Shown here in pieces: positions 4,804 through 54,132 of a DNA stretch of 64,000 nucleotides. The notes under the pieces were generated by a model, which ran no database searches, was not told the origin of the DNA, and saw nothing but the letters and a program-made list of their open reading frames with translations. This stretch comes from Utricularia gibba (taxonomy: Eukaryota; Streptophyta; Magnoliopsida; Lamiales; Lentibulariaceae). The stretch is from positions 578,501-642,500 of the forward strand of contig NEEC01000026.1 in assembly GCA_002189035.1 (NCBI GenBank). The letters are read 5' to 3'. Position numbers and translations under genes: made by a program. Position 1 is the first letter of the stretch; each line of letters starts with the position of its first letter.

Positions 4804-5261
4804 TTAGGCCACGTTTGGTTGGACAATTTAGGTGGGTTTTCGCGTGGGTTTAGGAATAAACCCACGTTTGGTACATGGGTTTTAGGTGGGTAAAAATATA
4901 CCCACCTGCTGGCTATATACTCGGCAGGAATCCGCCGAGCTGGGATTAACTAAATCGAGGGGGAGGGGGGAGGGGGTGGTCGATTTAGCTAAACAAGGGT
5001 GTTGATTCCAATTTTACCCTCAACGTCGTGTAAATTTGAACGCAGATCTACAGAAACTAGATGCAAGTATTGCGAATTGCCAGCGGCGTTGTGTTCGTGC
5101 ACTTTGGGTGCAAATAGGTGGGTCTTCCGGTACGTGTGTTTTTTGTTCTTGATGGGTTTGTCAACTACCAACATCTATGTATTCTAATTTTCCAATTTCA
5201 AAATCAGTGGTGATTTGTGTGTGGATTTCTTTCACTCGATTTTTATTATTGTTGAGGGGAC

Positions 5262-6580
5262 ATGAATTTTTTCAATGAGGGTCATGTCACCTTGCGTGCG
5301 ACTGCGGCGGTATTAACCAAATACTTGATTGGGATGAATGTGTTAATATACTTATATTGGAAAAATTACCATACGAAATATAGGGTGAGACACATGTATT
5401 TCTTTATAGACAAGATTCCTAAACAAGTTGAGTATATTAGTAGGTTGGTGAGTGATGTAAACAACACATCAATTGAGAACTTGAGAATCAGCCGAAATGA
5501 CTTTGGTATTTTATGTAGCCTGTTAGAAAATCATTCTAGTTTAAAGGCTGGAAAATATGTTACAATTCCGAAGATGGTTTGCATATTTTTAAGAATCTCA
5601 GGTCACCATAAAAAAATGTAGGTGCGGAAGCATGTTTATAGGAGGCTTCCAAAAGGTGTTGCATGCAGTCCTTTGCTTTTATGAGGTACTACTAGAGACC
5701 CCAGTAGCTGTTGGAAAATATGCATTCGAAGGAAAGTTCAAATACTTTAAGGGTAGACACATCTTTCATACATGTTTTTTAGAATGTGGCTCCAATTAAC
5801 TATGCATTTGTAGCATTGGGTTGGGGCCATAGATGGTACATACATCGATATACGAGTGAAGAAATCAAAAGCTGCAAGGTATATAAATCAAAATGGTGTG
5901 ATATCGACAAATGTGTTGGGTGTATGTGATGAAGACATGAAATTTATGTATGTGCTAGTTGGGTGGGAGGGGTCTATTGCACACAATTAGGTGCTAAACG
6001 ATACATTCTCAAGATCCGATGATTTTCATGTACACGCAAGTATTTGACTTGTTTAGTCTCTGCATGTGATTTCAATCACTTTATGGAAATGAATATGTGA
6101 TGACACAGGAACATATTACCTATGCTATAATGGATACGCCAATAGGAAAGGTTTTTTGGCACCATACTATGGAGTCCGTTATCACTTGAAGGAGTGGGGA
6201 TAGGGAAATGGAGTATCCTAGAATGCTAAAGAGCTATTCAGCATGTGGCACGCATCAGCCAAAAATGTGATCGAACGAATTTGAGGCTTGATGAAAATGC
6301 GGTGGGGTATACTACAGTCAGCTAGCTACTATTCGGTAGATACACAAAATTGGATTGTTTTGGCATGTGCTTTGCTCCATAACCTAATTCGAAAGGAGAT
6401 GATCGTCGATCATCTAGAGGATGAGGTCCCATTGGATTTCCAGAATGAAATCAGGGAAACAAGTGATACATAAAATGTCATAACGTTTGTTGGAGGAAGT
6501 CAGGCATGGAATAGGTGGCGTGACGAGCAAATTGAGGTGATGTACACCGAGTGGCTCGCAACCTACAGACACCGCTAATG
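5262..6580 (+). pseudogene. HARBI1-like transposase (DDE_Tnp_4), degenerate
   Basis: The N-terminal part (5262-5621) reads as one frame and contains ENLRISRNDFGILCSLL, the conserved helix region upstream of the nuclease. The DDE nuclease follows from about 5815 with GAIDGTYIDI (first catalytic Asp), NVLGVCDEDMKFMYVLVGWEGS, and then a stop where the second Asp region is expected. From about 6120 come NGYANRKGFLAPYYGVRYHL and WGILQSASYYSVDTQNWIVLACALLHN. In-frame stops occur near 5990, 6200 and 6283, and there are probable unspliced intron positions. It is clearly homologous to the transposase at 51135-52468, but more decayed. Confidence 0.88.
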
Positions 6581-6589
6581 TAGGCCTGC

Positions 6590-7400
6590 TTTAGGTTGTG
6601 GTGTTATTGATTTTCCTAAATGAACATTTTGAAACTATCATGAAGTTTGTACTAGATTTGCTAAGTGAAACTTGTATGCATTAGAAAGATTGAAAAAGCA
6701 TCGCATACATATATATCCAATGCACAACCATACATACATCGGGTGTATGCCAACATGAACACCAATTCTCATAGTATCCGGTGCTTGCTGCAAGTAGTGG
6801 TGGGATTCTACCACTATGATATGTGTTACCATGGGATAACAAGGTATTACATGGAGGACCATTGGACTCGACACCGCGATCTTGGGATGACGTGCTTCGG
6901 AAGTCCTATTAGACATTACAGACTTAGCAGCATCATGTGTTGCCCAGTCCGACGCTTCAAAATTTTGGAAAGACATGAGCTTGAAGTTGCCCCATATTAC
7001 CCGAGTCATAAAATATGATGCTTCTAAACACCTATGGTACACTAAACACATAGCATCACCGCATGCTACCTTATCTAGCATTCTCTTTTTCAATAAAAGT
7101 GAGTTTAAATGGTGAAGTTATCCAACATTAAATGCGCTGGGCGGTTTTTAACCATAGTGGGCAATTAATTCCCACCTGCACACAATAAAGTCACCTGACA
7201 TTTTCCACTTTCCAAAACGACTTCATTAATCATGCCCTTACAACTCCTTCCTTATGGCATACGTGCAACAGTACCGCATACATCGGATTTCTTCACACCC
7301 TCATCAGAAGAGCTTCATGATGATAGGCAGAACAGTACGCAGCCTATTCATATGTGTTTCAGAATCTTCCTTTCTTTCGGTAGTATGATTTCTTTTTCTT
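6590..7400. other. Internal Harbinger region without recognisable genes
   Basis: The region is of mixed composition. A short open frame on the minus strand (6638-7093) has no recognisable motif. It may be intron or flank of captured sequence. No nested TIRs or TSD could be identified by eye. Confidence 0.35.
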
Positions 7401-7409
7401 TTTTTGTAG

Positions 7410-7800
7410 ATGTTAGCATGTGACAAACTATGCGCCCGCTTCTCAATTCCTGACGGCTGCATTATGTAGGATAAATTACCCGGTGAAACATCCGACTCTG
7501 AACCACCAACCAGAGTTGGAGCAATGAGATTCGCCGTCAGCACCAAGCACTTTTGGTGTGGATTGCAATTGCCCCCGCCTCCTTTCTTGGTGCGGATACT
7601 TGCTGCACTCTTGATCCCACTCTTGCACTTGACTCCATATTTTGTGGTGCACGTACTCGCGTTTTTGCAGATTTTCCAAGAGGAGGATATACCTCCAAAA
7701 ATGTGTGTCTTCTTTGAAGTCTTCGTGTATGTCAATGTAAGGGGAGTTTGCACTATTCTCTTCATGTCAAACCGGGTGTGTTTCTCGTTACAGACATGAG
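7410..7800 (+). pseudogene. Transposase_28-like (putative gypsy-type transposase domain) fragment
   Basis: From just after a TTTTTGTAG acceptor-like site near 7411, the frame reads LACDKLCARFSIPDG, a stop, and then RFAVSTKHFWCGLQLPPPPF followed by VRILAALLIPLLHLTPYFVV. The alternation of 'hPxxPFhxxhL..L.h...QLTPxxhxxhhxF' resembles the plant 'putative gypsy type transposon' domain (PF04195), which is common in retroelement and MULE gag-like or captured proteins. It sits inside the Harbinger element, upstream of the FCP1-like relic, and may be the 5' part of the same passenger gene. One stop is visible in frame. Family assignment is from memory of the motif pattern only. Confidence 0.4.
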
Positions 7801-7974
7801 AAGCGCATATGATGATTGATGAATTAGTTTCGTATGGGTATGCCCACCCAACGGGCCAACAAAATTGACAGTGTCAGATAATGTTGGACACTCATCAAGT
7901 AATCATATACAAATACTTTAAAATATTCTAAATTTGTGTGCATCATAAGGCATGTTTTTTTTGTCGTCCTATTG

Positions 7975-9150
7975 TAGTAATGGAGGTCTTGCCAAAGAAT
8001 GCAGCAAAGAGGTTTTTGAATTTGTTCTCTAGCAGAAAAAAGTCACTATAGGACATTTTGCCACCCTTTGTCAATGCTCCTAGAATACAACATTTGTAGT
8101 GTGGAACCCTTGACACCATAGACAACGTAAGAGTACAAACGAAGATGCGGAGGACATGTTCCATGAAGAGGGTGAAAACATGTAGCCAGAAGGCGACAGT
8201 AACGGACCAAAACTGATTTTGATACTAGACGATGAGTACGGAGTTGCTACAGCAAAGTACACCGAGTTGGAGAGATTGCACGCAAAGAATCTTGAACTTT
8301 GTGGATGACTTGCTTGGTATGAGTGCAGGTGACCATATGGTGGACTGTCGAGCAATGATGCAGCCCCACCACGGAAGTTATTAATATTCGATGTAAATGG
8401 CGCACTTGCGCATATTGTGTATCCTTGGGATGTCAAGTGGGGAACTCCGAGGCCAGATGCGGTCATTTATGGGTGAAATGGTAATGTGCTGTATTTCACC
8501 TATGCATCCATCACGACGTGGTACTCTAACATTTGATATGAGTTTAATATTTCTTTTATGTTTCGATACTATTATTGTGGTTTTAGTGTATCTTCGACCA
8601 TAAGCACGTGAGTTGATATAGTTTTGCATGGAACATTTCCACGTCATGATGCGGTCTTTGAGAGGACGGTAAGATTGTCCAATGATTATGTGGTAAGGTC
8701 TATATGATGCTGACGCTTGATTTTCTCGATAAAATATTTCAATGAACAATTGCACGATGTGATTCAGGGGTTACTAGGACCTGCAACCGCCAACAAGCTT
8801 GTCTTCTAATGGGATGGATCCAGGACTATGGACACTAGTTATCCAATCACAACAATAGGAACAACACTATTAAGCTGAAGTTGTTGACTCATGTTTCGAG
8901 CGCCAACATAGAGTTCCAGGGCAAATATCACCATCTTAATACACTACTCATCAATGATGCGCCATACAAGTCACTACACAACCCGATGAGTGTCTCATCA
9001 CTCTCTTGCACCTTGCCATATTCCCAACAATTGTTCCCTGGTTTGAGGGGGTGATATTAGGTCGTTCTTGGAAGCGTTCATTGACATAATGGATGTTCCC
9101 ACACACGACGATCACCGACGAGTAGGTCAACATCCAATAAATGAAAAAAC
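7975..9150 (+). pseudogene. Chimeric passenger gene with FCP1/NIF-like phosphatase domain, broken copy
   Basis: At 7980-8080 the frame reads MEVLPKNAAKRFLNLF...KKSL, then a stop. A charged segment follows (8100-8330). From about 8375 there is an FCP1/NIF-type HAD fold: KLLIFDVNGALAHIVYP (motif 1 region), FCMEHFHVMMRSLRG near 8620-8660, LVFYWDGSRTMDTSY near 8800, and NTLLINDAPYKSLHNP near 8940-8990. The last matches the conserved NTLLhDDSPYK box of plant NLI-interacting-factor phosphatases. Motifs lie in different frames with stops, so this is a pseudogene or has unrecognised introns. The same module order occurs in the Mutator element at 43980-45085. Confidence 0.6.
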
Positions 9151-9890
9151 CAACAGTGGAAGCAGTACAAGGTTATTGCATGATAGATGATATACCTTTA
9201 ATTTGCATGGATCTTGCGTGAACTACGGTATTCTAACTTTGTTATTATGTGATCGAACAACTATTGCAGAAGCAACGCATGTATTAAGATCCAATGCCAT
9301 ATCTAACCATTGCACAATGTGTCCATATGCGGTACTTCATAACAATCAACACCAACACGATGCTCTTCCATCACTTCTTGGTAGCACCGCACTGTGATGT
9401 GCCATTGTTTGAAGCACTGTGTTTATGGGTTAGTGCTTCAAAGCGTAGCACTACGCTTGTTCATATGCAGTGCTTCCACAAAGGACGTGGAACATTGTCT
9501 ATCGTCTACTATAATGCTCACACCCTGCACTCAACCCTGCCCACTTCAATCAGGTGTTGTGTATACGAATTACATGTATTCATCTTCCGCCCTCATTTTC
9601 ATGTGGAATACCATACATATTTGTTTACAAGATGCTTAGAAGATGAAATAAATATAGTCCATGAGTCCAACAAAATGCCAAAACTGTACAAAAGATTTAA
9701 GATCTAAGGTCAAATGCAAGACTATGCACAATCAGCTCTCTTTCGCAATCATTTGAGGACGGAAACTAGTGCAACCTTACAGGGTTGGAGCTAATCATCT
9801 TTGCTATGGTAAAACATTGGAATGCAGAAAGTTGCAGTAGCATACCTCTGATGATCTCCCCTGCCTGATGCTGATTGTCCACCAACTCTC
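9151..9890. other. Harbinger interior, no supported gene
   Basis: Only short overlapping open frames without motifs are present (9203-9707). The 3' exon of the minus-strand Myb-like gene begins at 9898. Confidence 0.35.
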
Positions 9891-9897
9891 GCGATTG

Positions 9898-10701
9898 CTA
9901 CAGCACTGTTAATCCCAAGTGACGTAGCTCCTCACATGTGCACATATTATACTCCTTCATTTCTTTGAGGAGCTGCATATCATCATCGATTCCCCTCGGT
10001 CCCCGTCCGCTTCGTCTAGACCATCGTGAGTTGGTGTTGTTGTGTGATTCAAAGTCTCTACTCTTAGGAGTGACATTCACTCTCCACGCCACAACCAAAT
10101 GGGTCACAGGATGTGTCAGCGTACAAAAAGTTTATATCTTGTCCAATGATATCCGGATCCAGGGGACAATCCAAAGATGCATCCAAATTCTCACCAACAT
10201 CTTTAACTAATTTTCTCTTCATGGTCATAGTATTATCCCTGCCACTCCATGTAATACAGCCATGCTTTGTATCTTAGTACGCACAGCCTCGGTGCATGCT
10301 AACATAACCACATGATAAGCATCGGATATAACATCACCGACTGTAAGGCATACGTCCTAGTCAATCTCCTTCCAAACCTCCTCGTTAGCGTCTATGGTGT
10401 AGGTTAGCTCATTGAAATCGGTGCCCGACCTTGATAAAAAATCTACAAGGAGATAATAGCCTTTTTTCTATGTATGCACCTTGTTGGATATGTGCAGGTG
10501 TGCATGGATGTCAATTTCTGGGCGGAGTTTCAATAACTCTATCTCTAGTGCTCGGTGATACTCCCTCTTGAAACCATTCTCAATTTTCCAGCCTTCTTTC
10601 ACTATCTGCTTCAGAGCATGCAACAAATCCTTCTCCCCATCTGGCTTCCAGACCCGCTTCGTATTTTTGGTGGAGTCTTCCATGTCATTTGGGCTATGCA
10701 T
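9898..10701 (-). pseudogene. Myb/SANT-like accessory protein of the Harbinger element
   Basis: The minus strand reads MEDSTKNTKRVWKPDGEK, then LLHALKQIVKEGWKIENGFK, and further on IDIHAHLHISNK. This is the N-terminal half of the Myb/SANT-like DNA-binding domain (Myb_DNA-bind_3 type) found in plant Harbinger ORF1 proteins. The middle (about 9990-10460) is out of frame and carries stops. A C-terminal segment with DDDMQLLKEMKEYNMCTCEELR is at 9898-10107. Harbinger transposition needs both this DNA-binding partner and the transposase, and here both are damaged. The gene converges on the transposase, as in the second Harbinger copy. Confidence 0.75.
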
Positions 10702-11180
10702 ACCTATGGTTTATACTAAAGGAAAAAAATAGGAATAATAAAGCAAAATCAACGACGACTTACAATAAGTCAACCCTAGAATTAACTCTGAAATCAACAA
10801 ATTTTAAGTGAGAAAATCCACACAAAGAATGGCATACACAATCTGCAATTGACCCATGGCCCAAAGCCCTCACTTACTAGTGAAATCGTAGGAGATCTCA
10901 TCGCACGGCAGCACCATAACCCCATAGATGATGTCGATGGAGAAAGGGGAAAACTAATTGTGATAAAAATGTGTAATAATTTTTGGGAAAGGCTATATTG
11001 GTAATTTCATATGAACATTTATCACAAACCTAATTTTATACCCACGTAACAAACATGTTTTATAATTTAAACCCATCAACCAAACACGAATAATCTTCTA
11101 AACCCATCAAATCCATTTATCTAAATCCAAATAAACTAAATCCGAGTTTAAGTGTTACCCAATAACCAAACGTGGCCTTA

Positions 11181-31379: not shown

Positions 31380-33582
31380 TTAGGATACTATGGAAAGCTA
31401 ACCAAGTGTTAGTAGCAACATTTCAAATATGATAGCCATGCAAATAAGCTTAGACTTGAGGTCAACAAAGTTATCTTGATCTTAAGTTTGCATTTTCGCT
31501 CATTACTAATGACAATCGAAGTATTTGAGTAGGTCATTGAGTGTTAGTGTTTAAATGCAATTATAAGTTTGATACATCAGAAAGACACACACTCATATTC
31601 TAATATCAAATAAGATATAAGTATGATGAAAATTGTTCATTGCATTTTGGCTGGCCATAGAAAGACTCATCAATTCACCTTATTATTGTTACATCATGGG
31701 AATCATGATATGTTGTTAGAGATCACTCATGATCGATAATGATGGATTTGATTAATTAAGAATTAATTAATGAAATCCATTATTACGGCATTGATTGATA
31801 CAATTACATGAATTGAAATCCATTATTACGGCATTGAAATCCTATAGGGTCACACACAATCGTGGAGCCACTCATCGATACAAAATATAATGATACAATT
31901 ACATGAAATATAATTGGTAATGTATATAAATTAAATATAGAGTTATTTTAAGATTAATATTGATTAAACTCAAAATAAAAGATTTGATATATATAAGATT
32001 TGGAACATATATATATCTTCACAAGATAAGATCTTTACGAAAATTTGATTAGATATGTTACCAAATATCTATCAAAAAGATTCGATCTGCAGATATTTTG
32101 ATATCTTTGTTCTCTTTAAAATTGATCCGCAAGGGAGCGATTTTTTCTACTAGCACCTGAGGAGATGGACCATCATTATGCTGCCTTGAGAAGGTTATCG
32201 ACGGAGTGCTTCACGTGTGGATATCTGATAACACATATTTTTGAGTGTTTAGGAGTAGAAAAATGTCTAATATTTTGTCACAAAACTCAAGTTCTAGCAT
32301 GAATTTCTATGCTTTTGCAACTAGTACTGCAATCGCATGTTTTATTCCTAGTTAGGACTAAATCATGATTTAGTCCAACCTTAGTTTTAATTGTTTCCTA
32401 GAGCAATGCAGCAATTGTCGGCCAATTCAATTTCCTAGAAGCCAAAAAGAGCACAGTGAAATTATAAAGTATATGGACAAAAAACTAAAGAAAGTACAAT
32501 CAAATATTAAGGAAGAGAAGAAAATGATTTTGAAAATAATGAGGAAATAGAAAATATCTTCCCATTGAAGAACACGAAAAACAGTGGTGGGAGGGGAGAT
32601 TTGGAAGGAGAGAGTAGCACAACCATGGAGGACGAAGAAGATGAAATCATGATCCAAGCTCTACTTTGATGATTTTCTTCCGTTCTTGAAAAATACTATT
32701 CCTAACTTAGAATAGTTTTAGCTTTACTACATGACCCATTTGCCTTTTCTATTTCTATTATGTACTGCTTGCTGTTGTTTAATTTTGAGACCAGAATGTT
32801 GCTTGTGATATGTTATGAAAACGTTTTTCTTTTCTTTATCATGAGTGGCTAAATACTTAGAGGAGTGCCTTAGGGTCAAAGGGATGTAATGTACTAATCA
32901 ATCATTTGACCTTGTTAATTATAGATCATACCACTTCCTTATCAAATCAAGATAGATTCAGTAGAGGGAAGTAATGATATTCCTCTTAACAACCCTAATT
33001 AGAGGTAGAGCAAAGATTAAAAAAAACAAGGGTTTGGATAGATCTAGACTTTTGCTTGTTAGATGTATGATTTATGGTGTATGTGAGGTTATTTTAATGA
33101 TAAGCATACAAGCTCTAGGAGTCTCAAGGCGCCACCAATTTCATCTTCGAAACAACCGAGTTCAAAAGTTTGTTACTTTTATTTATCGTATTCTATCGTA
33201 GTTCTGTCTTAGTCCTAATTAAAACCAAATTTATCAACGTGACATTGATTACATGCATTGATAATCACATGACAAGCACCTGCTCTTCATGTTCAACCCT
33301 AATCATTATGCTCATAATTGTATCATGCTTGAATGTATGTTAGATTATAAATTTATGTGATAGGAAAATTTGCAATTTAATGACATTACATATTTTTTGT
33401 TTATCAATATCATAGAGGCCATCTATTGTTGGCGGTTGGTGAACAATGGAGTGCACTGAAAGGTATTCTCACAATCTCCATATCTGATGTATATCGTATT
33501 CCAAGATCTGTGGTTTGGGTTTCTCAAAAAGTTTTAAATTCCGTTGCTTTTCTGACATAAGATGTTTACGAGAAACCTAACA
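31380..33582 (+). mobile_element. Copia LTR copy, 5'-truncated and interrupted by a nested solo LTR
   Basis: The segments 31380-32225 and 33407-33582 together match 57560-58647. Shared blocks include 'agcttagacttgaggtcaacaaag', the GATGGATTTGATTAATTAAG block and the terminal GTTTACGAGAAACCTAACA. A short internal duplication of 'aaatccattattacggcatt' lies at 31776-31834. The 5' end of the LTR is missing. The interruption at 32226-33406 is a separate element with its own target-site duplication. Confidence 0.78.
32226..33406 (+). mobile_element. Nested solo LTR (family A), 1.18 kb, perfect TSD
   Basis: It starts TGATAACACATATTTTTGAG and ends TTGTTTATCA. A perfect ATATC duplication flanks it (32221-32225 and 33407-33411). 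Removing it rejoins the copia LTR exactly where the 58.5-kb copy is continuous (gtggata|ccatagagg). The inverted repeat near 32362 (GGACTAAATCATGATTTAGTCC) and the 'gtgccttaggg' block near 32865 mark it as the same family as 2466-3836 and 52963-54132. It has no coding capacity. Confidence 0.88.
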
Positions 33583-34378
33583 ATGCTATCAGTACTTTCT
33601 TCAAGGTATCGAAGACGAGAGGCTTCTACCAATTTTATGTACAAATGACCCCAATGTCTATGTAATTCACCTCGGGTAACTAAAAATGAAGTATTCACAT
33701 ATATACAATAATTATTTCTAATTCTTACGATAGTGATACATACCTAACAAAATATGATGCATGAAGCGTATGTACCGAAGAAGTGTTTCATCATTAGCTA
33801 TGGATTGTGCCTATAACTTCCATCGCATAAATTCTATAAAGCACATTTATAGAAAAATGGAAACTAAAGGTAATACATACCAACCTTGACAATCATGCAG
33901 TGACATCAAAATAGATAAAATATAATTACAGAAATCTTGAAAGGATACCCAATAAACACTACATCGACAAAATTAATCAGAAAGGATTATATAAGTTACA
34001 ATGAAAATTAAATGACTCCCAAGCAATCCCATTATCTATCCACCCTAAGACTTGCTATCTCTATCATGAATGACATGGGCAAACAAGTCATTCACAGCTA
34101 AAACAAGTAACTTTATCACCCATTGCATGGGTTGGGGAGCACAAGTAGCAAACTTATCTCTTTACTCGTAGCTCTCTTTGGTCTACGATTAACAGAACAT
34201 CTGATAGGCTTTATCAAGTTTCATATACTTCTTCATCAACTTCTTGATCGTATGCCTCCAAATCCCATTGTAGTCACTGGATATCAAATTAAAAAGAATC
34301 AATCTTTGGTGACATATTGTTGGATGGCTCCAAGTCACCCAAATCAATGAACCTGATGATAACATCGAGGATCATGAA
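33583..34378. other. Intergenic DNA without recognised features
   Basis: The segment is mixed AT-rich. A short open frame at 34123-34350 has no motif. Confidence 0.35.
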
Positions 34379-34646
34379 TGTATTAAAGGCACACCCTCAT
34401 AAGCTTATATTTACAATTTGAATCATCAACAAATCATTTAAAATTTGAACTCAAATATAAATAACACATAAAATCACATATCCTCATAATAAGTGTTCAT
34501 CATAGATATCATGTATTAAAGGCACACCCCTCATAAGCTTATACCTACAATTTGAATCATCAACAAATCATTTAAAATTTGAACTCAAATATGAATAACA
34601 CATAAAATCACATATCCTCATAATAAGTGTTCATCATAGATATCAT
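34379..34646. repeat. Tandem duplication, two units of about 132 bp
   Basis: The block beginning 'tgtattaaaggcacaccc' and ending 'gttcatcatagatatca' occurs twice in direct succession (from about 34379 and from about 34511). The two units differ at only a few positions, so the duplication is recent. Confidence 0.88.
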
Positions 34647-42563: not shown

Positions 42564-43059
42564 GTAAATCCCCGAGTTTTTACCAAATACAAAAAATCCA
42601 GTTCCAAAATCAACCATTGTATGCCTTTCATTTCTATCAAAACCATCCATTTTATCGATTTTTTTTTCATTTTTGAATTTCTTTTTTACAAAAAATAGAA
42701 ATATATTACATTTGTTTTATAAATATTGTAATAAATATTATTAAAATATTTGTTTAGAATTTAAAAATTATATTAAATAAAAAATTAAATCAATTATTAT
42801 TTTTCAAATATAACACGAAAAATAAAATTAAATTTTTCATAATTTATATTTTTATTTAATTATTATATATTCAAAAATATATACAATTAAATAATAAAAA
42901 ATAAATAATTTAAAAAAAATGAAAAATCAAACTATATTATATATTCTTTACAAATAATAAACTAAATTAAAAACCAACAATATCTTTTCATTTAACTTTC
43001 TCATTTTAATATTTTTTATTTATGTTAATCATTACAATTCGTTATTACAATTATCAGAA

Positions 43060-43660
43060 ATAAAAAAATATAAAAAAAACAACAATTACATATTTCTATC
43101 GATCACTACAATTCACCAATTACAGTTATTAGAAATGAAACTAATATAAAGAAAACGATAATTGTCTATTTCTATCGATCACTGTAATCATCAATTATAA
43201 TTACCACAAATAAAAGTAATATAAGAAAAACTATAATCGTCTATTTTTGTCGATCACTATAATTCATCAATTACAGTGAATAGAAAACATGGTGATAGTA
43301 GTATGTTAAGCAAAAGTGTTCCGAACAAGCATAAAAGAGAAAATAAAAATTACTCGAGTAATAGTTTGTACCTCTAAATTTTATGGTCACCGTAATTACT
43401 AATTACAGTTATCAGAATTGAAAGTAATATAAGGAAATGATAACCTGTTTCTACGGATCACCGTAAGCATCAATTACAGTTACTAGAGAAAATGTTTATA
43501 ATACTCTAATAAGCAAAACGATGATTACATATTTTCCCGATCATCAATTACAATTACCAGAGAATATGCTTATAGTACTCTACCAAGCAAAATGATGATT
43601 ACCTATTTTTGCCGATCACCGTAATCATCAGTTACAGTTATTAGATAATAATAAAGCAAA
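43060..43660 (+). repeat. Left subterminal repeat array of the MULE
   Basis: About seven imperfect units of roughly 72-80 bp share the core 'cgatcactgtaatcatcaattacagtt...aga' (near 43105, 43177, 43252, 43387, 43458, 43539, 43613). The right-hand array is the reverse complement. Confidence 0.8.
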
Positions 43661-43979
43661 AATGCTCCTAATATGTATAATGAAATAGAAAATGAGAATT
43701 ACTCTACTAATGTTTTGTAATACTCCTAGTCCGGATGGTCTTCATTCATTGGGGCTTGACCAATACGAAAATCATGCACAAAGGATGATACATCAAGTGC
43801 ATCTATAAGTTATTCAAGAAAAGTCTTCATCTCACCCCCTTCCATAAAAGATGAATCTTTTTTATGAATCTTTAAGAAAAGTCTTCATCTCAACCTATTT
43901 GAGAAGCATTAGAGTATAATTTAAACTAAAAAAATAAAATTTAACTTATGAAATTTTTAACTAAAATCATTACCAGATT

Positions 43980-45085
43980 TCTTGTAGACTTGTATGATGA
44001 ATCATCTACCAACAAGGTGTTACCATGTGTATACCGGCCATGAAAACCATCATCCTCCCATATTTTTTGCAATTCTTTCAGCGAAACAATACTTGCTGGC
44101 TTCTTGAGGATTCAAAGGTTTGTGGTGGTGCATTTCGTTCCATCCCATATGAATGCCAAATTCGACATCTTCTCGCCAAACATCCCGTTAATGACTTGGT
44201 TTAGTTATGAATTGTTACAAAAAGAATACATGTAAAACATATATATAAAAAATATAATATAATATTTTGTATGTTATCCTCCACGTGAGGACCATAGTGC
44301 AACATCAAAATGTTGCATACACCATTCCATGAACTCCCTAACATTTGGTTTTAGAAACACTAAAAATATAACATAGTCAATCAATAAATTAGCAACTAAC
44401 TATATGTTGCAAATGTGTGAAATACTAAATAAATATCATACCTGCTCGCCCATAAATCCACTTATCGGGACGCCCTTTGATGGTTGATGATGAATGAAAA
44501 ATATATCAGCAAAAATGTCATTGACGACAAATACTACTAATTTCCGCACCATTGGAATATGACTACTTGATTCGCAGAAAGAAGACCGTTTGGATTGATA
44601 CCACTTTAGTTGTTGCTTCAACGCCTCATTTTTAGCAACCAAATCATTTGTTTCATTGTCAACCGCCACATCTTTATGTGAATTATCAGCATTATTTCCA
44701 CTTTGATCATCCACATCATCATCCTTCTTTGTAATTTTTTTTTTCATACCAACACTTGGCCGTGCCCCGAACTCTAAAAATAGGAGATAGGACTGTAGTC
44801 AATGACCTAGTCTGCCCTTTAAAGAAAACAATGAATTCATCAACGACATCCCTTGGTAACATCTCAATACCTAACAATAAATATAAGTAAATTAGATCAA
44901 TAAAATCATAACAATTCTCATAAAAGCACATAATATAAAAAATTGTTTAACACATAAAATACCTTGTGGTTTTCCAATAAGATAAGAATTTGGAAGTGTG
45001 CGTGGGAAATCATTTGATAAATCTTTAGGAGGAGAAACCTATACAAAACTTGTCCACCAACTATCATAGCCACTTCATAGACCTT
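43980..45085 (-). pseudogene. Chimeric passenger gene with FCP1/NIF-like phosphatase domain (MULE copy)
   Basis: Minus-strand exon-like segments in order: PKDLSNDFPRTLPNSYLIGK (about 45040-44960); GIEMLPRDVVDEFIVFFKGQ then TRSLTTVLSPIF (44900-44790); a charged, coiled-coil-like stretch KKKITKKDDDVDDQSG...KNEALKQQLKWYQ (44745-44590); KLVVFVVNDIFADIFF (44540-44490, HAD motif 1, with the catalytic first Asp replaced by Val); REFMEWCMQHFDVALWSSRG (44340-44285); LAFIWDGTKCTTTN (44150-44110); and NTLLVDDSSYKSTRN (44020-43985). The last boxes are hallmarks of FCP1/NLI-interacting-factor phosphatases. Introns appear between segments. It is truncated upstream by the LTR at 45086. The lost Asp suggests no phosphatase activity. 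Confidence 0.62.
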
Positions 45086-46355
45086 TGATAAATGAAAATT
45101 TCCTAGTGTCATTGCAAAAATAGAAAATTTGTTATCAAATAAATTTATAATCCCTAATCCACACAAAATACAAATTTAGAAAACTTGTATAGTGGTTATC
45201 GGGGTCGATCATAAAGAACTTGTGCTTGCTAAGTGTTTTAGTAAATACATGATTCGGAATAACAATAGGTCTTAGTCTAAGCTCGGGCTAGCAGTGCAAG
45301 TAAGTTCAGTAAACGAAATCAGGTTTAAATGCGAAAGGTAACAAGTACTAGTTTTAACTTAGAATAATACGAAGATGCCTTAAGGGTCTGCAGGTGGTAT
45401 GGTGCTAAAATGTCTAACTTAAATTACCATGTCTCTACACTCATAACTTCAAATAACCTTAGTCTACCTAGGTCATTTGTAATATTTTACGCAAAGCTGG
45501 TCTCCAATATCATCACCAACATTGCAATTAGGCTTACCTGCATGCAAAGTGTATAGAACTAGGTCTACCCGATTCTACTGGTTCTATCCCGGATTAACAC
45601 CTACTTTGTCCGCCTTGATTTGTTGGTCTACATCTAAACCAAGTTTCTTAGTCGCGAAGTTACTTGTTCCCCTCCTTAGGTCTACCCATAAAATGATAGA
45701 AACAAGAACTAAGAAACAATGATGAATTTTACTAAGAATCCTAGACCCACACCACCATGCTTCACCTTAAGACATCCCTAGGGTTCTAGCTACTCATACT
45801 TTGAAGGTTAAGCATGATAACATCAACATAAAACAACGAAAATGTCAAGAATATTGTGAAAGAGTTGCGTGTAGAAACTGAAAACATCAACAAACTAAAA
45901 TAAAGCAGTAAGAGTTCAGTTTTCCGTCTGCTACTGTTCCTTGGCTGGAATAGTAGTACTGGACTAGGTTTTGATGATGTTCTTGAGGGTGAAGTCCTTC
46001 TTCTTCTCCCCTGGATTGTGTTCTTCGTATTGGAGTTGGAGGTTGGGGGAGAAACTCCCTCGTCCCCCGTTGGAGGTTGTTGAATCTTGGAGGGAAAAAT
46101 CCCCGCTGTGTGTGTTCTCCGAAAATTCTGAGTTGAATCCCCTTTTTGCGACTCTCTCTAAGCATCTTTCTCTCGCCTCCTACTTAAAACACTAGTTTTA
46201 AGTGTTTTTATGTAATTTAGGAAAATGAAATTTTTGGTGTGATTAGTGGGCTAAATCCTTTGATTTAGCCCACCTCATGTCTAACCCGATTTTAGAGTCT
46301 AGCAGCAACCCAAGAATCAAGGAAAAATCTTGATTTCGTGCAAGTCACTAGGTTA
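45086..46355 (-). mobile_element. LTR (family A) inside the MULE, truncated, with inverted end segment
   Basis: The low end TGATAAATGAAAATTT (LTR 3' end read on the minus strand) and most of 45086-46190 are the reverse complement of 2770-3836, for example 'ggtagacctaaggaggggaacaagt'. In contrast, 46190-46355 matches 2540-2705 in the same plus-strand orientation, centred on the inverted repeat at 46246-46273. The family's TGATA(A/G)CACA start is absent, and the LTR abuts a copia fragment at about 46357. The 5-mer before it is ACCTT (45081-45085), with no partner found. Confidence 0.7.
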
Positions 46356-46356
46356 C

Positions 46357-48031
46357 ATTACTTCTAAAATCCTTGGTTCCTGCAAAATCGAGTCAACGAA
46401 ACCATATTAATCCTTGCTGCTTTTCTTGTACAAGCCATAAGAAGATGTTTAGGGTTTCCAGCAATGTATCTCAAAACCCTTTTCGCACACTGCAAGTGAT
46501 TTTCCATAGGCTGGTGCATAAACCTAGAGAGAAGGCTCGTTACAAACATGATGTCTGGCCTAGTGTTGGTGAGGAACATCAATGACCCGACAATTGATCT
46601 GAAAAGTGTTAAGTCAATAGCCTTCCCTTCTTGTGCAAAAACGGATTTGTAATTTTGCAATATAGGGGAGTTGGCAGCAGAACATTCTGAATATCCAAAC
46701 TTCCTTAGCATATTTGTAGAGAATTTGGTCTGTGAGAGAAAAATTCCAATTGGTAGCTGCTCAACTTCCATACCTAAAAACTGATGCATTAGTCCAAGGT
46801 CTGACATCTCAAACGTGCCTTTCAGAAAACTCTTGAATTTGTTTATCTGAGAGACATTCTTTCCTGTAATCAACATAAATAACCGTGATCAGGGTTGCCT
46901 TGTTATCCTCTAGATAGATGAATAGTGCTGCATCATTTTTGGATTTTTCAAATCCAAAATCCAGTAGAGCCGTTTCCAAACGTTCATACCAAGCTCTAGG
47001 GGCTTGCTTTAGACCATATAAGGCTTTTAGTAAGAGATATACCTTGTTTCCTGGGATTTCGAATCTAGGTGGTTGCTTGCAGTAGATTTTTTCCTGTAAA
47101 TCTCCATTTAAAAAGGCCGACTTGACATCCATCTGATGAACTCTCCAATTCTCTTGTGCAGCAATAGCAAGTAAGAGTCTAATGGTATCAAATCTAGCAA
47201 CACGGGCAAAGGTATCATAGTAATCAATACCATGCTCTTGGGAGTAGCCTTTGACTACCAACCTTGCCTTATACTTTTGTAGAGTTCCATCAGCATTAGT
47301 CTTGATCTTGAACACTCATTTTAGTCCAATGATGTGGGCTTCAGGTGGAGGATCGACCAGAATCCTGGTGTTATGTTTCTGAATCATCTTGAGCTCTTCT
47401 TCCATAGCCCTTTTCCAATGGGATTGTTGTAAGGCTTCCCCAACATCTTGCAGTTCTGAGGATGCAATAGCAAGGTTTGCATATTCATGTATGTCTGTAA
47501 ATCTCCTTGTCCTTTGAAGTGATGTTCCTGTTTGATCTTCTGCTGTCTCGTGATATATATCTAATAACAGTCGAAACCTTGTGGCCTCAGATTCATCAAG
47601 GCTGGAGGGAGTGCTACTTGGTGAGTGGATGCTCTCTTGAGCATCTACCGGATTATTTGAGCTATTCACGTCATCAGGTTGAGGGGGTGTACCCGAATAA
47701 GCATCATCATCCAGGTCATCAAGAGAAAAATCGTTAGAGGAATAAAGATTGACCTTTTTTGAGATACTAACCACATGTGAGGCAAGAAGGTTGCACTCCC
47801 AATCCCAGAAGTCATCCTCATCAATCCACACACTTCGAGCTATACTTACTCTTTTTTTTGTGGATTGTAGATTCTATAGCCTTTAGTACCTTCAGAATAT
47901 CCGATGAATATACCAGCCAACGAACGGTTATCCAGCTTAGACCGCAACTCAGCTGGCACTAGAGTGTATGCTACTGATCCGAATACCCTGAGGTGACCAA
48001 CAGCTGGTTTCCTGCCATAAACCAGCAACAA
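46357..48031 (-). pseudogene. Ty1/copia pol fragment (integrase end to reverse transcriptase)
   Basis: On the minus strand come the integrase C-terminus (GRKPAVGHLRVFGSVAYTLVP, IFIGYSEGTKGYRIYNP), a Ser/Asp-rich linker, and then reverse transcriptase (FKIKTNADGTLQKYKARLVV, MDVKSAFLNGDLQEKIY, ALYGLKQAPRAWYERLE, and after a break MSDLGLMHQFLGMEV, YIAGNPKHL). The catalytic YVDD box is cut by a small deletion with a frame change near 46870. Gag, protease and RNase H are missing. It comes from a different copia lineage than 1-2340, judged by its sequence. It is nested inside the MULE. Confidence 0.92.
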
Positions 48032-48369
48032 TGCCTCTCATTCATGATCCTACACATAGTTCACGATATAGGATGAATATGGATAGGGGAAGGAGCGCAG
48101 GAATGAGAAGTGGACATAGTGGAAGACCAAGATTTTCACAAGATACAGCTTCACCTGCACATAGTCCACCTCAGAGTCATCGGGTATCTATTGATGTACC
48201 ATATCACCGTGATTTCAAAGGTCTTTCTCAACAATCACGGTCATCTCTTCAAGAACGACCTCAAGGTATGAACACTAGGTTTGATCTTCCTAGCTCGTCT
48301 ACTCAACAGTCTAGGAAGCAAAAGTTACTTGTGTGTAAATTTTTTGGGTCATTTATGAAATTCAGATAA
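48031..48369 (+). CDS. Hypothetical Ser/Gln/Arg-rich frame inside the MULE
   Basis: The frame of 112 codons (RYRMNMDRGRSAGMRSGHSG..., SSTQQSRKQKLLVCKFFG) is low-complexity and rich in Ser, Arg, Gln and Pro. It starts exactly where the copia fragment ends and stops at the right subterminal repeats. It could be part of a captured host exon or chance. No family is recognised. Confidence 0.22.
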   Translation: MPLIHDPTHSSRYRMNMDRGRSAGMRSGHSGRPRFSQDTASPAHSPPQSHRVSIDVPYHRDFKGLSQQSRSSLQERPQGMNTRFDLPSSSTQQSRKQKLLVCKFFGSFMKFR

Positions 48370-48384
48370 ATATTATCAATATGT

Positions 48385-48900
48385 AAAATACTATTTGATT
48401 GGTAACTGTAATTGATGAATTACAGTGATCGGCATAATTATGCAATTATCATTTCCTTTATTACTTTTGTTTTTAGTAACTGTAATTGATGATTATAAGG
48501 ATTGGCAAAAATAAATAATTTTTGTTTTGATTACATTACTTTCATTTATACTAACTGTAATTGATGATTACAGGAATTGGAAAAAATAAACAATTTTTCG
48601 TTTTGCTTATATTACTTTCATTTATGATAACTGTAATTGATGAATTACAATGATCACCAGAAATAAGTAATTGTCATTTTCTTTATATTACTTTCATTTT
48701 GAGTAATTGTAATTGATGAATTACAGTGATTGTCAAAAATATGCAATTATCGTTTTTTTATATTATTTTTATTTCTAGTAACTGTAATTTATGATTACAG
48801 TGATTGTAAAAAATAAAGAATTATCGAATTGCTTATATTAATTTCATTTCTGGTAACTGTAATTGATGAATTGTAGTGATTGGTCAACATAAATTAACAT
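48385..48900 (-). repeat. Right subterminal repeat array of the MULE
   Basis: Seven or so imperfect units share 'taactgtaattgatgaattacagtgat' (near 48403, 48477, 48552, 48628, 48704, 48778, 48854), the reverse complement of the left array. AT-rich TIR-like sequence continues to 49675. Confidence 0.8.
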
Positions 48901-49920
48901 ATGTAAAATTTGTTTTCACTAATTGAATCACAATTAGTATATAGTAAAACATGAATTCTATTATTGTATTATAAAAAAATCGATACATTATAGATATATA
49001 TATGTATTATAATGATTCATATAATATGTATCTTTGTATTTTTTAAGAAAATCGAATATCTTGTGGAATTTTATAAATATAAATATTTTATTTTTTATTA
49101 TTTTAAAATTGTTATACATTTCTAGTAACTGTAATAGATTATTATGGTGCTTGAAAATCTCGGACACTATAATTTATATTGTAGGCATCAATTTCAATAT
49201 AAATTAATATATGAATATTTTTTTTCACTAATCGAAATATAATTAGAATATATAGAAAAACATGATTTCTATTATTGTATGTTCAAAAATAATGATACAT
49301 ATAATATATAAGTATTATATTTGTAATTTCAAAAAAACATAAATATCTTGAGAAATATTAGAAATATAAATATGTGTATTTTTATTTTAAAATTATACAA
49401 TTAAAATTATGATTAATTTTTAAAAATATTTTATTAATTAATTAGTTTGAGTGATATAAACAGTTTTTTTTAAAAAAATTTGAAATATTTATAACAGAAA
49501 TTATATTATTTAAATACATATATTTATTATATTTAAATGTATACGATATCTAAGAATAAAATTAATTCAAAAAAGAAAAGAAAAAGTTAAGATAGATGTT
49601 TTTGTACACATAATATACATAGTGGATGGTTTTGGAATTGAGTTTTTTCACAGTGGGTGGTTTTGTAAATGACCCGTAAATCCCCCTCGAAAAGGTTTCG
49701 TTAGTTGTAACATAGGGGTTTAGTTCATTTGAGTATTCGACTGCTATATTTAAAGAGTAATTTCTAATGGTATAAATCATTGGATTTTAAAAAATAGATT
49801 TAGAGGTTTTTCTCATAAAATATAGAATTTTGGTTGGAATTGCAAAAGGTTTGTGACAACATATTTCTTATAAATTTATTTTTGATTTCTAGAAAAATTT
49901 AATTGTTTTTGTATGTGTTC

Positions 49921-50510
49921 AGCATTCACTTCAAACTTACAAGGCCATACAGTTCAAAATATTTCCACTCTATGAAGAATGGGTTGAAATTTTTGGAAGT
50001 GATCGTGCGACTGGTGAGGGAGCAATACCCATCGATGATGAACCAAGAAATGACATCGAAGGTGCAACTACAGGGCTAGAGGAAGACCCACCAAATGAAA
50101 ATGGTACAGAGGGTGTTTATTCTAATCTGAAAAGCCAACACTCTAATGATGAGTCAAGTTCATTTTTTGAGGATGTATTTGCATGTAGCAAACAAGAAAG
50201 GCCAAACAAGAGAGGAAAACGAAAGAGAATAGCATATGATGACCAAGATTTTATTATAAAGCTTCGGGAGATGACTCAAGAAACCAATGCTATGTTGCTG
50301 CAAATATCATCTAGGCTAACTACTGAAAGTGATTGCCAACGTCAAGCAGCTACAATGATACGAAGCATGTCTCTTCATATGTCTCCAATTGAATTTATGA
50401 ATATTTCAGAGGTTATAATTAATAACCCTGGAAAGCTACAAAGTTTTCTAGCAATGACAGATTCTGAAAAACTTGAATTAGTATCAAGCATTCTAAAAGA
50501 ATATCGTTAG
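49921..50510 (+). pseudogene. Harbinger Myb/SANT-like protein, C-terminal exon
   Basis: After a TGTGTTCAG acceptor the frame reads HSLQTYKAIQFKIFPLYEEW, then VEIFGSDRATGEGAIPIDDE. The FPLYEEW...IFGSDRATG segment is the conserved end of the Myb/SANT-like domain of Harbinger ORF1 proteins. A nuclear-type basic stretch KRPNKRGKRKR-like and MTQETNAMLLQISSRLTTES follow, to the stop at 50510. The DNA-binding N-terminal exon is not present upstream, where the MULE lies. Confidence 0.72.
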
Positions 50511-51134
50511 CATTATGAAAATACTTAGTTAGTGATTATGTATTTTGTCTTTCATTTAAACGTTGTTGTCTATTGTTTGTTGAAGATTTTATTGTTGTTA
50601 AAACTTTGATTACAATTAAGATGTTGATGAGTTTGCATTATGGTGTGATTGGTTATTAAATGATGTTATATAACTTATTTTATTTTCACTTGGTTAATCA
50701 TTTTTTTTATTGCTATATGTATTGGTTTTTTTGGATAGGCGACATCCCATGTGCTGGAAAATTTTTTTTATTTCATTGCTTCTCATCCTTTCTTAAGGTC
50801 TCAATAACAAATCAAATCAAACAAACACACATTAACTAAGAATTACAACACCAAATAATTTATTTTTCAAGCAAACAAACAATCACTAAACATATATCAA
50901 TCTTATTATTTGTAAAAAAGCAAACTAAGTGTATATTGATTAACTAAATTGGATTAAATAGTTAAGATAACAGATAATCATAAATCAGCCTAAAAAAACC
51001 ATCAAATACAACTAAACATAGCAAATACCATCATTCCAACAAAACTTACATAAAGGCTCAATGTCCAGCAATAATCCAATATAAATAGTTGCAAAACAGA
51101 TTATATATTTCAACAAATCTACTCATTTAAGTAT
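50511..51134. other. Non-coding centre of the second Harbinger
   Basis: AT-rich 3' sequence between the two convergent Harbinger genes; nothing else seen. Confidence 0.5.
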
Positions 51135-52440
51135 TCATTGATCAATCCATTCCAATGATGACACATTCTCAGAAGTCATAAAATTACCATGACTTGTCTC
51201 ATTATCACAATAGTCATCCGGAACCTCATATTCATAAGGATCTTTGGTCATCTCTCGTCGTATAAAATCGTGAAGCAACGCACATGCATTGATGATCCTT
51301 ATTTGTGCATTTATAGGATAGAATGAGGCGGAACGCAATATACCCCATCTTTTTTTCATAATTCCCCAAGTCCTTTCAATAACATTACGTGACTTTGCAT
51401 GCCACATATTAAAGTATTCTTTTTCATCTTGAAGAATTTGAGTACCTTCACCCCAATCTTTAAGATGATACCTTACGCCTCTATATGGTGTCAAAAACCC
51501 TTCACTATTTGCATATCCATTATCCGCCAAATAATAATAACCTAGAAATATCAAAACAATAAAAATTAGGAAAGTTGGTATATAAATAATGCATAAACAT
51601 ATAGACTGTCGTACCCTTAGGAACACGAAATGGGTTCTTTCGTGTAAGCACATCTTGTAATACTCGTCCATCTGCAGCCGAGCCTTCTCATCCTGCTAGT
51701 ACATATATGAAGCACATTTTATCATCGCGGACTCCTAATACATTGGTTGCTATTGATCCTTTACGTGTTCAATATCAAGGTTTATCCACCCCCTTCACTG
51801 TGACATTCACATAAGTTCCATCTAATGCACCTAAACAATTCTAACACAAAAAGCAAATAATAATAAATACCTATTTCATATTAACACCAATAACAACAAA
51901 GTATTGACTTAGAAATATACTTTAAAATATGTGTTACCTCAAAAAATTTGAAGCTTGAACCATTGTTGCTGCAAATAGGCTTCGGCTTAACCAACAATTT
52001 ATCATGAAGCTTAAGAACAGCTTTAAAAACTTGATTAAAATATATGCTACATGTAGCCGTAGATCTCAAGAAATCAAATTTTTGAGATCTTATCTTCTTG
52101 TGATGTGCTAGCACACCAAAAAATAATGCAACTTTTTCTTCAATGGAGACCCACCTGGAGTTTTTTAAACCAGAAAATTGTTGCAAAAGAAAACAGAGTC
52201 GGCCAAAAGCATCTTGACTCAAACGCAAATTCTCACAAGCTGCTCCTCTAACATCGGTTACCAAATTGCACAAATACTGTTCTTGCTTTGGTCGCCTAGC
52301 CAAAAGAGAATAGTGCCGTGCTTTCTTCTTGCGCGTCAAATTCCAGTGCAAATAACAAGCTAATCTTAGCATAGCCCATTGAATCACAATAACTCTTACA
52401 ATCAAGGAAAAAATAGAGCGATTCCGATGCACTGCCATTC
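51135..52440 (-). pseudogene. HARBI1-like transposase of the second Harbinger (few disabling changes)
   Basis: The start MAVHRNRSIFSLI is at about 52440. The N-terminal region has ENLRLSQDAFGRLCFLL and FFGVLAHHKKIRSQKFDFLR. After an intron (about 51850-51950) comes NCLGALDGTYVNVTVKGVDK with the first catalytic Asp, then stops in the next 100 bp (near 51780 and 51700, one replacing the Trp before EGSAADGRVL). After a second intron (51545-51610) are YYLADNGYANSEGFLTPYRG, WHAKSRNVIERTWGIMKKRW (third acidic residue, E) and IINACALLHDFIRREM. It is younger than the copy at 5262-6580 but not functional as read. Confidence 0.85.
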
Positions 52441-52708
52441 TGCATTGCAATGAAATAGATTGAACCAAATGTGCAGAAAAGAGGGATTTTTGAGAGTGAA
52501 GGAGACGAACGATTGAGGGGCAATTTTGGTATAAAATAAAAAGTATTAGATAAAATAAGGGAGGGCCGATGTTTTATTTAAACCCTTGTACATGGGTTTA
52601 AAAAAACCCTTGCAATCCCGGGATCATTTAAACACACAAAGTAAACACAATACAATTTGCAATCCTACTTTTAAACCCATTGAATCCTTTCAACCAAACA
52701 ATCCCTTA

Positions 52709-52962: not shown

Positions 52963-54132
52963 TGATAAACGAAAAATTTACACGTCGTAAATGTAAACTT
53001 TCCTATCAAATAAATTTATAACTTAATACACATTCAAGCATAAAACAATTATGAGCATAGTGGACTAGGGTCGAACACAAGGAGCTAGGTGCTTGCTATG
53101 TGAAGGTCAATGCAAGGAATCAATGTCATGTTGGTAAAATTGGTCTTAGCTAGGACTAAGGTAGAACTAAAACGAAATATAGTAAAAAAAAGTAATAAGT
53201 TCTAGAGTTCGGTTGTTTCTGGAATGAAATGGGTGATGCCTTGGGACTCCTGGGGGATGTATGCTTATCACTAAACAAACTCACACAAACCACAAATCAT
53301 ACAACTAACTCACAAGATCTAGGTCTACCCGGATTCTTGTTTTTCCCCCTAATCTTTGGTCTACCTCTAATTAGGGTTGTTAAGTTGGGTTTCACTACTT
53401 CCCCCTCTTGATCTATCCTGGTTTGTTAAGGAAGTGGCGTGACTCATGGCTGTTTAGATCTAAAAGTTGATTAACATGTTTCTCCCCTTTTTACCCCAAG
53501 GCACCCCCCTAAGTACTTAGCTAGTCATGCTTAAAGTAAACGAAAGTGGAAAAGAAAACATCACCCACAGTGTGCTCATTTTACAGTCAAATACCAGAAA
53601 GCAAACAAGCAAGTAATGTGAAGTGTCAACAAAAACTGAAAAACGTCACTAGCTACTCTTAGCTAGGAGTAATATTCTTCGAAGACAGAAAATAATCTTG
53701 AACTTCAGCTTCGTTCCTGTTTGTCTTCCTTCTTCTTCCTTCCCAGAAAACCTTCTCCCCATAAAATGTGTTCGTGAGTCTCCAAGGGGAGATCTACCTT
53801 CTCTCTCCACCTTTCCCTCTTTTTGTCCAAAATCTCCCTTTTTCCTCCTTGGATTTTGTGTGCACCACTTTTCTGACATTTGGACTCATCTTCTGCCACT
53901 ACACTGTGCATGTTCGGCTCCTTGGAATTTGTGTTGTGACCTACACTGCATTGCTCGAATAAAACTATTAGAAGGTTGGGGCTAAATCATAGATTTAGTC
54001 CCAACTAAAACTAAAATCACACAATTACGGTACTAATGCACAAAAATATAAAACTAGGCAGTAAAATTAAATTTTTGTAGCATAATATGAATTTTTTTCA
54101 TGTACTTAATCACTCAAAAATATGTGTTATCA
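52963..54132 (-). mobile_element. Solo LTR (family A), 1.17 kb, perfect TSD
   Basis: The plus-strand ends are TGATAAACGAAAAATT and AAATATGTGTTATCA, so on the minus strand it starts TGATAACACATATTTTTGAG, identical over 20 bases to the start of 32226-33406. A perfect CAATG duplication flanks it (52958-52962 and 54133-54137). The central C/T-rich zone (53700-53960) and the inverted repeat near 53977-53999 are as in its relatives. It has no pol or gag. Confidence 0.9.

What the first reader, a model, noticed from the sequence alone, without database searches (positions are those of the whole stretch)
43980..45085. Same chimeric FCP1-like passenger gene in two DNA transposons of different superfamilies
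Seen: the Harbinger at 4.8-11.2 kb (plus strand, 7975-9150) and the Mutator-like element at 42.6-49.7 kb (minus strand) hold the same module order. First comes E(V/M)LP(K/R)...F...F...SL...LxP, then a charged stretch, then FCP1/NIF boxes: K-L-x-x-F-x-V-N, C-M-x-H-F-x-V...S-x-RG, L-x-F-x-WDG, NTLLxxDxxYKS. Known: NTLL-D-S-YK is a plant NLI-interacting-factor phosphatase box. Inference: one chimeric gene was captured by or travels with two unrelated transposon classes, or it belongs to an unrecognised element nested in both. Both copies are damaged, and the MULE copy lacks the catalytic Asp.
Basis: partly seen in the sequence, partly recalled or inferred. Interest (0 to 1): 0.75.

Follow-up and report, generated by a model that had tools for sequence, protein, structure and literature searches.

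The report
Chimeric gene shared by unrelated transposons
In this plant genome, one fused gene (a transposon domain of unknown role joined to a relative of a plant phosphatase) sits inside at least three unrelated kinds of cut-and-paste DNA transposon, which suggests that transposons can pass useful helper genes to one another.

Summary
Window 7975-9150 (+) and 43980-45085 (-) hold homologous copies of one gene. They lie in two unrelated transposons whose ends I located: a PIF/Harbinger at 4807-11177 (TSD TTA, TIR GGCCACGTTTGG, DDE_Tnp_4) and a long-TIR Mutator-like element at 42574-49675 (10-bp TSD GTAAATCCCC). The gene is longer than reported: Transposase_28 (PF04195) exon, short conserved module, coiled coil, FCP1/NIF-like exons, conserved C-terminus. 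It has more than 100 copies in the genome. Of 108 clusters, 36 lie downstream of a Harbinger transposase (0.6 expected) and 11 downstream of a hAT transposase (0.6 expected). At least 13 lie in the MULE family. So three superfamilies carry it, not two. Three introns sit at identical sites in all TE lineages and in host FCP1-like genes, which lack Transposase_28. In the tree the TE copies separate from four host genes with 100/99 support. Best reading: a host FCP1-like gene was captured as DNA, fused to Transposase_28 and passed between superfamilies as an accessory gene. Both window copies are dead, but others keep motif-I Asp. Function is untested. Motif I is DVNG, not DxDx(T/V), so phosphatase activity is doubtful. 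Fungal TET/JBP genes are the nearest precedent.

The parts
4807..11177 (+). Element A: PIF/Harbinger transposon, TIR GGCCACGTTTGGTT, 3-bp TSD TTA at 4804-4806 and 11178-11180
   Evidence: full-length relative at C460:850447-856920
5829..6383 (+). Harbinger transposase DDE_Tnp_4 domain (decayed: 7 stops)
   Evidence: C507:584329-584883, E 9.6e-15
7539..7727 (+). Exon 1 of the chimeric gene in A: Transposase_28 (PF04195)
   Evidence: C507:586039-586227, 29.1 bits, cut-off 26.2; 131 bits with own block model
7980..8470 (+). Exon 2 in A: conserved module (EVLPKNAAKRFLNLF...), charged stretch/coiled coil, FCP1 motif I (LLIFDVNG)
8586..8670 (+). Exon 3 in A: VYLRP..RELI.FCMEHF box (decayed)
8759..9145 (+). 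Exons 4-5 in A: WDG / NTLLINDAPYKS boxes and C-terminal GGDIRSFLE..ID.MDVP block
42574..49675 (-). Element B: long-TIR Mutator-like element with about 75-bp subterminal repeats; 10-bp TSD GTAAATCCCC at 42564-42573 and 49676-49685
44436..44865 (-). Exon 2 of the chimeric gene in B: EMLPRDVVDEFI module, charged/coiled stretch, motif I (VFVVND, Asp lost), frameshifted
44283..44360 (-). Exon 3 in B: VFLKPNVREFMEWCMQHFDVALWSSR
43962..44204 (-). Exon 4 in B: LAFIWDGTK ... NTLLVDDSSYKS
43741..43866 (-). Exon 5 in B: C-terminal GGEMKTFLE*LIDALDVSSFV block, with an in-frame stop
45086..47990 (-). Copia-type retrotransposon sequence inserted in B; replaces exon 1 (Transposase_28) and most of the MULE transposase (right border approximate)
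   Evidence: all sister copies lose similarity to the window at 45086
47992..48369 (+). Remnant of the MULE transposase C-terminal tail in B (matches L078 ORF 1437-1943)
   Evidence: by reading the two translations
33845..34516 (-). Third, older FCP1-like relic in the window (KLLVLAVNDLFAHVIH); relative of L024/L025, which also carry Transposase_28

Best explanation
Both regions are decayed copies of one transposon-borne accessory gene: Transposase_28 - coiled coil - FCP1/NIF-like. Its FCP1 half came from a host FCP1-like gene, copied at the DNA level with introns kept, and was fused to a Transposase_28 domain. The fused gene then moved between transposon superfamilies (Harbinger, Mutator-like, hAT) and multiplied with them. 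Shown: anatomy, element ends, repeated association with three transposase types, shared architecture and intron sites, split from host genes. Inferred: a single fusion followed by transfer, and that the protein helps the element. The most likely role is a trans-acting factor that binds host chromatin or transcription machinery to favour expression of the element, with the FCP1-like part as a phosphoprotein-binding (pseudo)phosphatase module. This functional step is a guess, at about 0.3.
For: Element ends and TSDs. DDE_Tnp_4 in A. MULE (3.4e-12) and DBD_Tnp_Mut (1e-4) between the same TIRs as the gene at C414. hAT dimerisation (2e-14) and hAT RNase-H (1.2e-9) domains upstream of L086. Genome association: 36, 11 and 6 of 108 clusters against about 0.6 expected each, and 56 with Transposase_28 upstream against 0.2 expected. 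Transposase_28 and NIF over the Pfam cut-off in one reading. Same block order in A and B. Three introns at identical sites in MULE, Harbinger, hAT and host copies. Host genes without Transposase_28. Tree: host versus TE 100/99, MULE 100/99, hAT 100/100, Harbinger-A 100/100. dN/dS 0.37 in Harbinger-A, below the neutral simulation range 0.61-0.86 at kappa 4.
Against: Only one plant genome could be searched; host homologues with Transposase_28 in other plants are not excluded, so parallel captures remain possible. dN/dS in the MULE copies (0.57, 0.44-0.69) cannot be told from neutral (0.57-0.82). Whether hAT is nested inside Harbinger is not settled (AU p 0.084). No copy examined is fully intact, and expression was not tested. 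hAT element ends were not found.
Confidence: 0.78

Rival explanations
1. Independent captures: a host gene that already had the Transposase_28-FCP1 architecture was copied separately into Harbinger, MULE and hAT elements.
For: DNA transposons in plants often capture genes; introns are kept in all lineages; gene position and orientation differ between superfamilies (opposite to the MULE transposase, same strand as Harbinger and hAT).
Against: The host FCP1-like genes of this genome have no Transposase_28 within reach, and all TE copies fall on one side of a 100/99 branch. Transposase_28 is itself a TE domain (PMC11963269).
Confidence: 0.15
2. The chimeric gene is itself a small mobile element nested in both transposons.
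For: It occurs in several unrelated element types.
Against: A-family copies align continuously through the gene over the whole 6.4-kb element; A and B share no DNA-level similarity; I saw no TIR or TSD around the gene; its place in each family is fixed.
Confidence: 0.03
3. The gene is a passive passenger (Pack-type capture) with no role for the transposon.
For: Both window copies are dead; MULE copies show near-neutral dN/dS; motif I lacks the second Asp.
Against: It is present in dozens of copies at a fixed position in several families whose transposases are also present. Protein motifs and intron sites persist across lineages whose DNA is no longer alignable, and Harbinger-A dN/dS is below neutral. 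Pack-type elements lack transposase; these families do not.
Confidence: 0.2
4. The similarity is chance or a generic NIF match without common descent of the N-terminal part.
For: The single pieces are short and the A copy is decayed.
Against: Six collinear blocks, shared introns and more than 100 related loci.
Confidence: 0.01

Closest known systems
TET/JBP dioxygenase genes carried by several DNA transposon superfamilies in fungi (Kojima 2025, PMC12730594)
   Same: One accessory gene found in several unrelated DNA transposon superfamilies, passed between them, with no terminal structures of its own, at fixed positions within families
   Different: Fungi, not a plant; a demethylation-type dioxygenase, not a Transposase_28-FCP1 fusion; no fusion to a TE-specific domain in the parts read
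ULP1-carrying MULEs (Kaonashi/KIU, VANDAL) and VANC anti-silencing factors (as reviewed in PMC13317346)
   Same: A host enzyme domain captured by plant MULEs, fused to or next to a TE accessory protein, kept over long times, role in mobility suspected or shown
   Different: There a SUMO-protease domain in non-TIR MULEs; here an FCP1-like domain, also in Harbinger and hAT elements
Transposase_28 (TRP28, PF04195) antisense ORFs of Retand Gypsy retrotransposons (PMC11963269)
   Same: Same domain, as an extra TE gene of unknown role
   Different: LTR retrotransposons, and in the passages read no FCP1 fusion
Plant FCP1/NIF-like genes with the DVNG/DLNG motif (host loci L014, L020, L026, L028); nearest solved structure UBLCP1 (3shq)
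   Same: Same FCP1-like exons, intron sites and C-terminal block
   Different: Host genes lack Transposase_28 and the short conserved module, and are not repeated
Pack-MULE / Pack-TYPE elements
   Same: Host gene sequence inside a DNA transposon
   Different: Pack elements are non-autonomous without transposase; here autonomous families carry the gene as a standard part

Membership tests
PIF/Harbinger (element A) | 3-bp TSD TWA and short TIRs | tested here: met
   TTA on both sides, TIR GGCCACGTTTGGTT on both ends
PIF/Harbinger (element A) | DDE_Tnp_4 transposase | tested here: met
   PF13359 at window 5829-6383, E 9.6e-15, decayed
PIF/Harbinger (element A) | Second, Myb-like ORF | not tested
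   Not looked for inside 4807-11177
Mutator-like element (element B) | 8-11 bp TSD and long TIRs | tested here: met
   Perfect 10-bp TSD; long inverted ends with 75-bp repeats
Mutator-like element (element B) | MULE transposase | tested here: met
   In full-length sister C414: PF10551 3.4e-12, PF03108 1e-4, just below its cut-off; the window copy keeps only a C-terminal tail
hAT (loci L086/L088 type) | hAT dimerisation and RNase-H domains | tested here: met
   PF05699 2e-14, PF14372 1.2e-9; 11 loci with the same layout
hAT (loci L086/L088 type) | 8-bp TSD and hAT TIR | tested here: inconclusive
   No convincing ends found in 15.3 kb
FCP1/NIF (PF03031) | Match to the NIF profile | tested here: met
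   L082 50.2 bits, L079 22.4 bits, cut-off 21.8; window B alone 15.5, below cut-off
FCP1/NIF (PF03031) | Catalytic motif DxDx(T/V) | tested here: not met
   Motif reads DVNG in TE and host copies; first Asp kept in most, second never. So it is a homologue, not a shown phosphatase
Transposase_28 (PF04195) | Match to the profile | tested here: met
   Window A 29.1 bits; L079 31.5; hAT L086 41.5; MULE copies up to 40.2
TE anti-silencing factor (VANC-like) | Trans-acting loss of methylation at related copies | not testable with these tools
   Needs methylation data and expression

The most novel reading that the evidence does not exclude
A Transposase_28-FCP1-like protein is a shared, functional helper (for example an anti-silencing or transcription-activating factor) that three unrelated plant DNA transposon superfamilies use and have exchanged.
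Probability: 0.35. Interest if true: 0.82.

Novelty: new variant of a known kind. Interest (0 to 1): 0.64.

Why it matters
Accessory genes shared across DNA transposon superfamilies are documented in fungi (TET/JBP). I found no report of one in a plant, nor of an FCP1-like or Transposase_28 gene in Harbinger, MULE and hAT elements. If the protein helps transposition or escape from silencing, it would show that unrelated transposons trade helper genes. It would also give Transposase_28, a plant TE domain of unknown role, a first testable context. In annotation, these copies would inflate counts of plant FCP1-like 'phosphatase' genes.

Tried and rejected
CACTA (PF02992) as the carrier of the third type: no hit in the genome, and the tool warned that this does not prove absence. 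Rfam: nothing. hAT TSD/TIR search by script: only A/T-rich chance pairs. dN/dS of MULE copies as proof of selection: dropped after a neutral simulation gave the same range. iqtree codon model: no omega in the output. PDB search with the Transposase_28 exon: no match. Structure prediction was not tried because no copy gives an unbroken spliced protein. The nested-element idea was considered and rejected. Literature searches for FCP1/NIF genes inside transposons found none.

Full report
Observation. Regions A (7975-9150, +) and B (43980-45085, -) are homologous. Six-frame comparison gives collinear pieces with E 1.5e-5, 1e-4, 0.002 and 0.003, and tblastn of the B protein onto the window returns A at 6.7e-11. 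The match runs beyond the stated ends: a C-terminal block lies at about 9026-9145 and at 43741-43866. DNA-level similarity between A and B is absent, so the relationship is old.

The two carriers. A lies in 4807-11177, with TIR GGCCACGTTTGGTT and TSD TTA on both sides and a decayed DDE_Tnp_4 at 5829-6383. This is a PIF/Harbinger element. A relative at C460:850447-856920 aligns over 6.4 kb. B lies in 42574-49675, with a perfect 10-bp TSD GTAAATCCCC and long ends built of about 75-bp repeats. Its sister at C414 carries, between the same ends, a MULE transposase domain (3.4e-12) and a MuDR DNA-binding domain (1e-4, slightly below cut-off), both on the strand opposite to the gene. In the window copy a Copia-type insertion at 45086 has replaced the first exon and most of the transposase; only a transposase tail remains at 47992-48369.

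The gene. Exon 1 encodes Transposase_28 (PF04195; window A 7539-7727, 29.1 bits; L079 31.5; L086 41.5; MULE copies such as C413 40.2). Exon 2 holds the short conserved module, a charged/coiled stretch and FCP1 motif I. Exons 3-5 carry the remaining FCP1 boxes and the C-terminal block. NIF (PF03031) is over cut-off in L082 (50.2 bits) and L079 (22.4 bits). The block order is the same in A and B families.

Genome-wide association. I merged FCP1-like hits into 108 clusters and compared them with DDE_Tnp_4, MULE, Transposase_28 and hAT hits. 36 clusters have DDE_Tnp_4 upstream on the same strand (0.56 expected), 11 have a hAT dimerisation domain upstream on the same strand (0.57 expected), 6 have MULE upstream on the opposite strand (0.65 expected), and 56 have Transposase_28 within 2.5 kb upstream (0.2 expected). 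The MULE profile misses many B copies, but long-TIR hits flank at least a dozen of them. At C213 the gene follows a hAT transposase (PF05699 2e-14; PF14372 1.2e-9). A second MULE lineage with transposase, Transposase_28 and FCP1-like gene on one strand is suggested at C1:4.73 Mb and C507:0.36 Mb.

Origin. Host FCP1-like loci L014, L020, L026 and L028 have the FCP1 blocks but no Transposase_28 or short module. Three introns lie at the same places in MULE, Harbinger, hAT and host copies: before V(F/Y)L, after WSSR.., and at NP|V. The FCP1 part was therefore copied as DNA, not through mRNA. In maximum-likelihood trees the TE copies separate from the host genes (100/99). MULE, Harbinger-A and hAT are each clades (100/99, 100/100, 100/100), and Harbinger plus hAT plus L079 form a group (98/95). 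Whether hAT is nested in Harbinger is not decided (AU p 0.084).

Selection. Nei-Gojobori dN/dS is 0.37 (0.28-0.46) among Harbinger-A copies and 0.57 (0.44-0.69) among MULE copies. Simulated neutral sequences of the same make-up give 0.61-0.86 and 0.57-0.82 at kappa 4. Only the Harbinger value argues for constraint. MULE copies look like a burst that is now decaying.

Mechanism. Motif I reads DVNG in TE and host copies: the first Asp is mostly kept, the second is never present. The nearest solved relative is UBLCP1, whose aligned motif is DIDYTL. A classical FCP1 phosphatase reaction is therefore doubtful, and a binding or altered-activity role is more likely. Together with its fixed place in several autonomous families, this suggests an accessory protein acting in trans, perhaps on expression or silencing of the element. 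That step is inference only.

Comparison with known systems. Fungal DNA transposons of many superfamilies carry related TET/JBP genes with no ends of their own, thought to be passed between superfamilies (PMC12730594). Plant MULEs carry ULP1 domains, and VANC proteins counter silencing (PMC13317346). Transposase_28 is known as an antisense ORF of Retand retrotransposons, of unknown role and apparently confined to flowering plants (PMC11963269). I found no report of a Transposase_28-FCP1 gene in DNA transposons. The library holds open-access papers only.

Limits. One plant genome was available (100.09 Mb, 516 contigs; species not verified; size would suit a small-genome angiosperm such as Utricularia gibba, untested). 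Counts are lower bounds. Many copies are decayed and hAT ends were not found.

Noticed in passing
window 33845-34516 (-); L024, L025: A third, older FCP1-like relic in the same window, 66% alike to a pair of inverted copies at C304 (about 867 kb and 970 kb) that also carry Transposase_28; carrier transposon not identified.
   Followed up: partly
L086 4888-5286; C213, C1, C402, C414, C304: The hAT-borne elements carry a second Transposase_28 gene (without FCP1) about 2-3.7 kb downstream of the chimeric gene.
   Followed up: partly
G000 C1:4729506-4735330, C507:357665-361986, C142:581143-584273, C451:5584799-5589633: A second MULE lineage seems to carry the FCP1-like gene on the same strand as its transposase, with Transposase_28 between them at two loci; its copy L021 branches first among TE copies.
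   Followed up: partly
window about 49893-52573: Another Harbinger remnant (DDE_Tnp_4 at window 51270-51545, -; possible Myb-like ORF 49893-50510, +) with no FCP1-like gene seen.
   Followed up: no
window 52963-54132 and 32225-33407: A repeat of about 1.1 kb, 77-88% alike, that also sits beside the chimeric gene in MULE copies L060 and L069; identity unknown.
   Followed up: no
G000-wide: About 35 Transposase_28 hits matching profile positions 5-67 with no FCP1-like gene or transposase nearby; possibly Retand-type retrotransposon ORFs.
   Followed up: no
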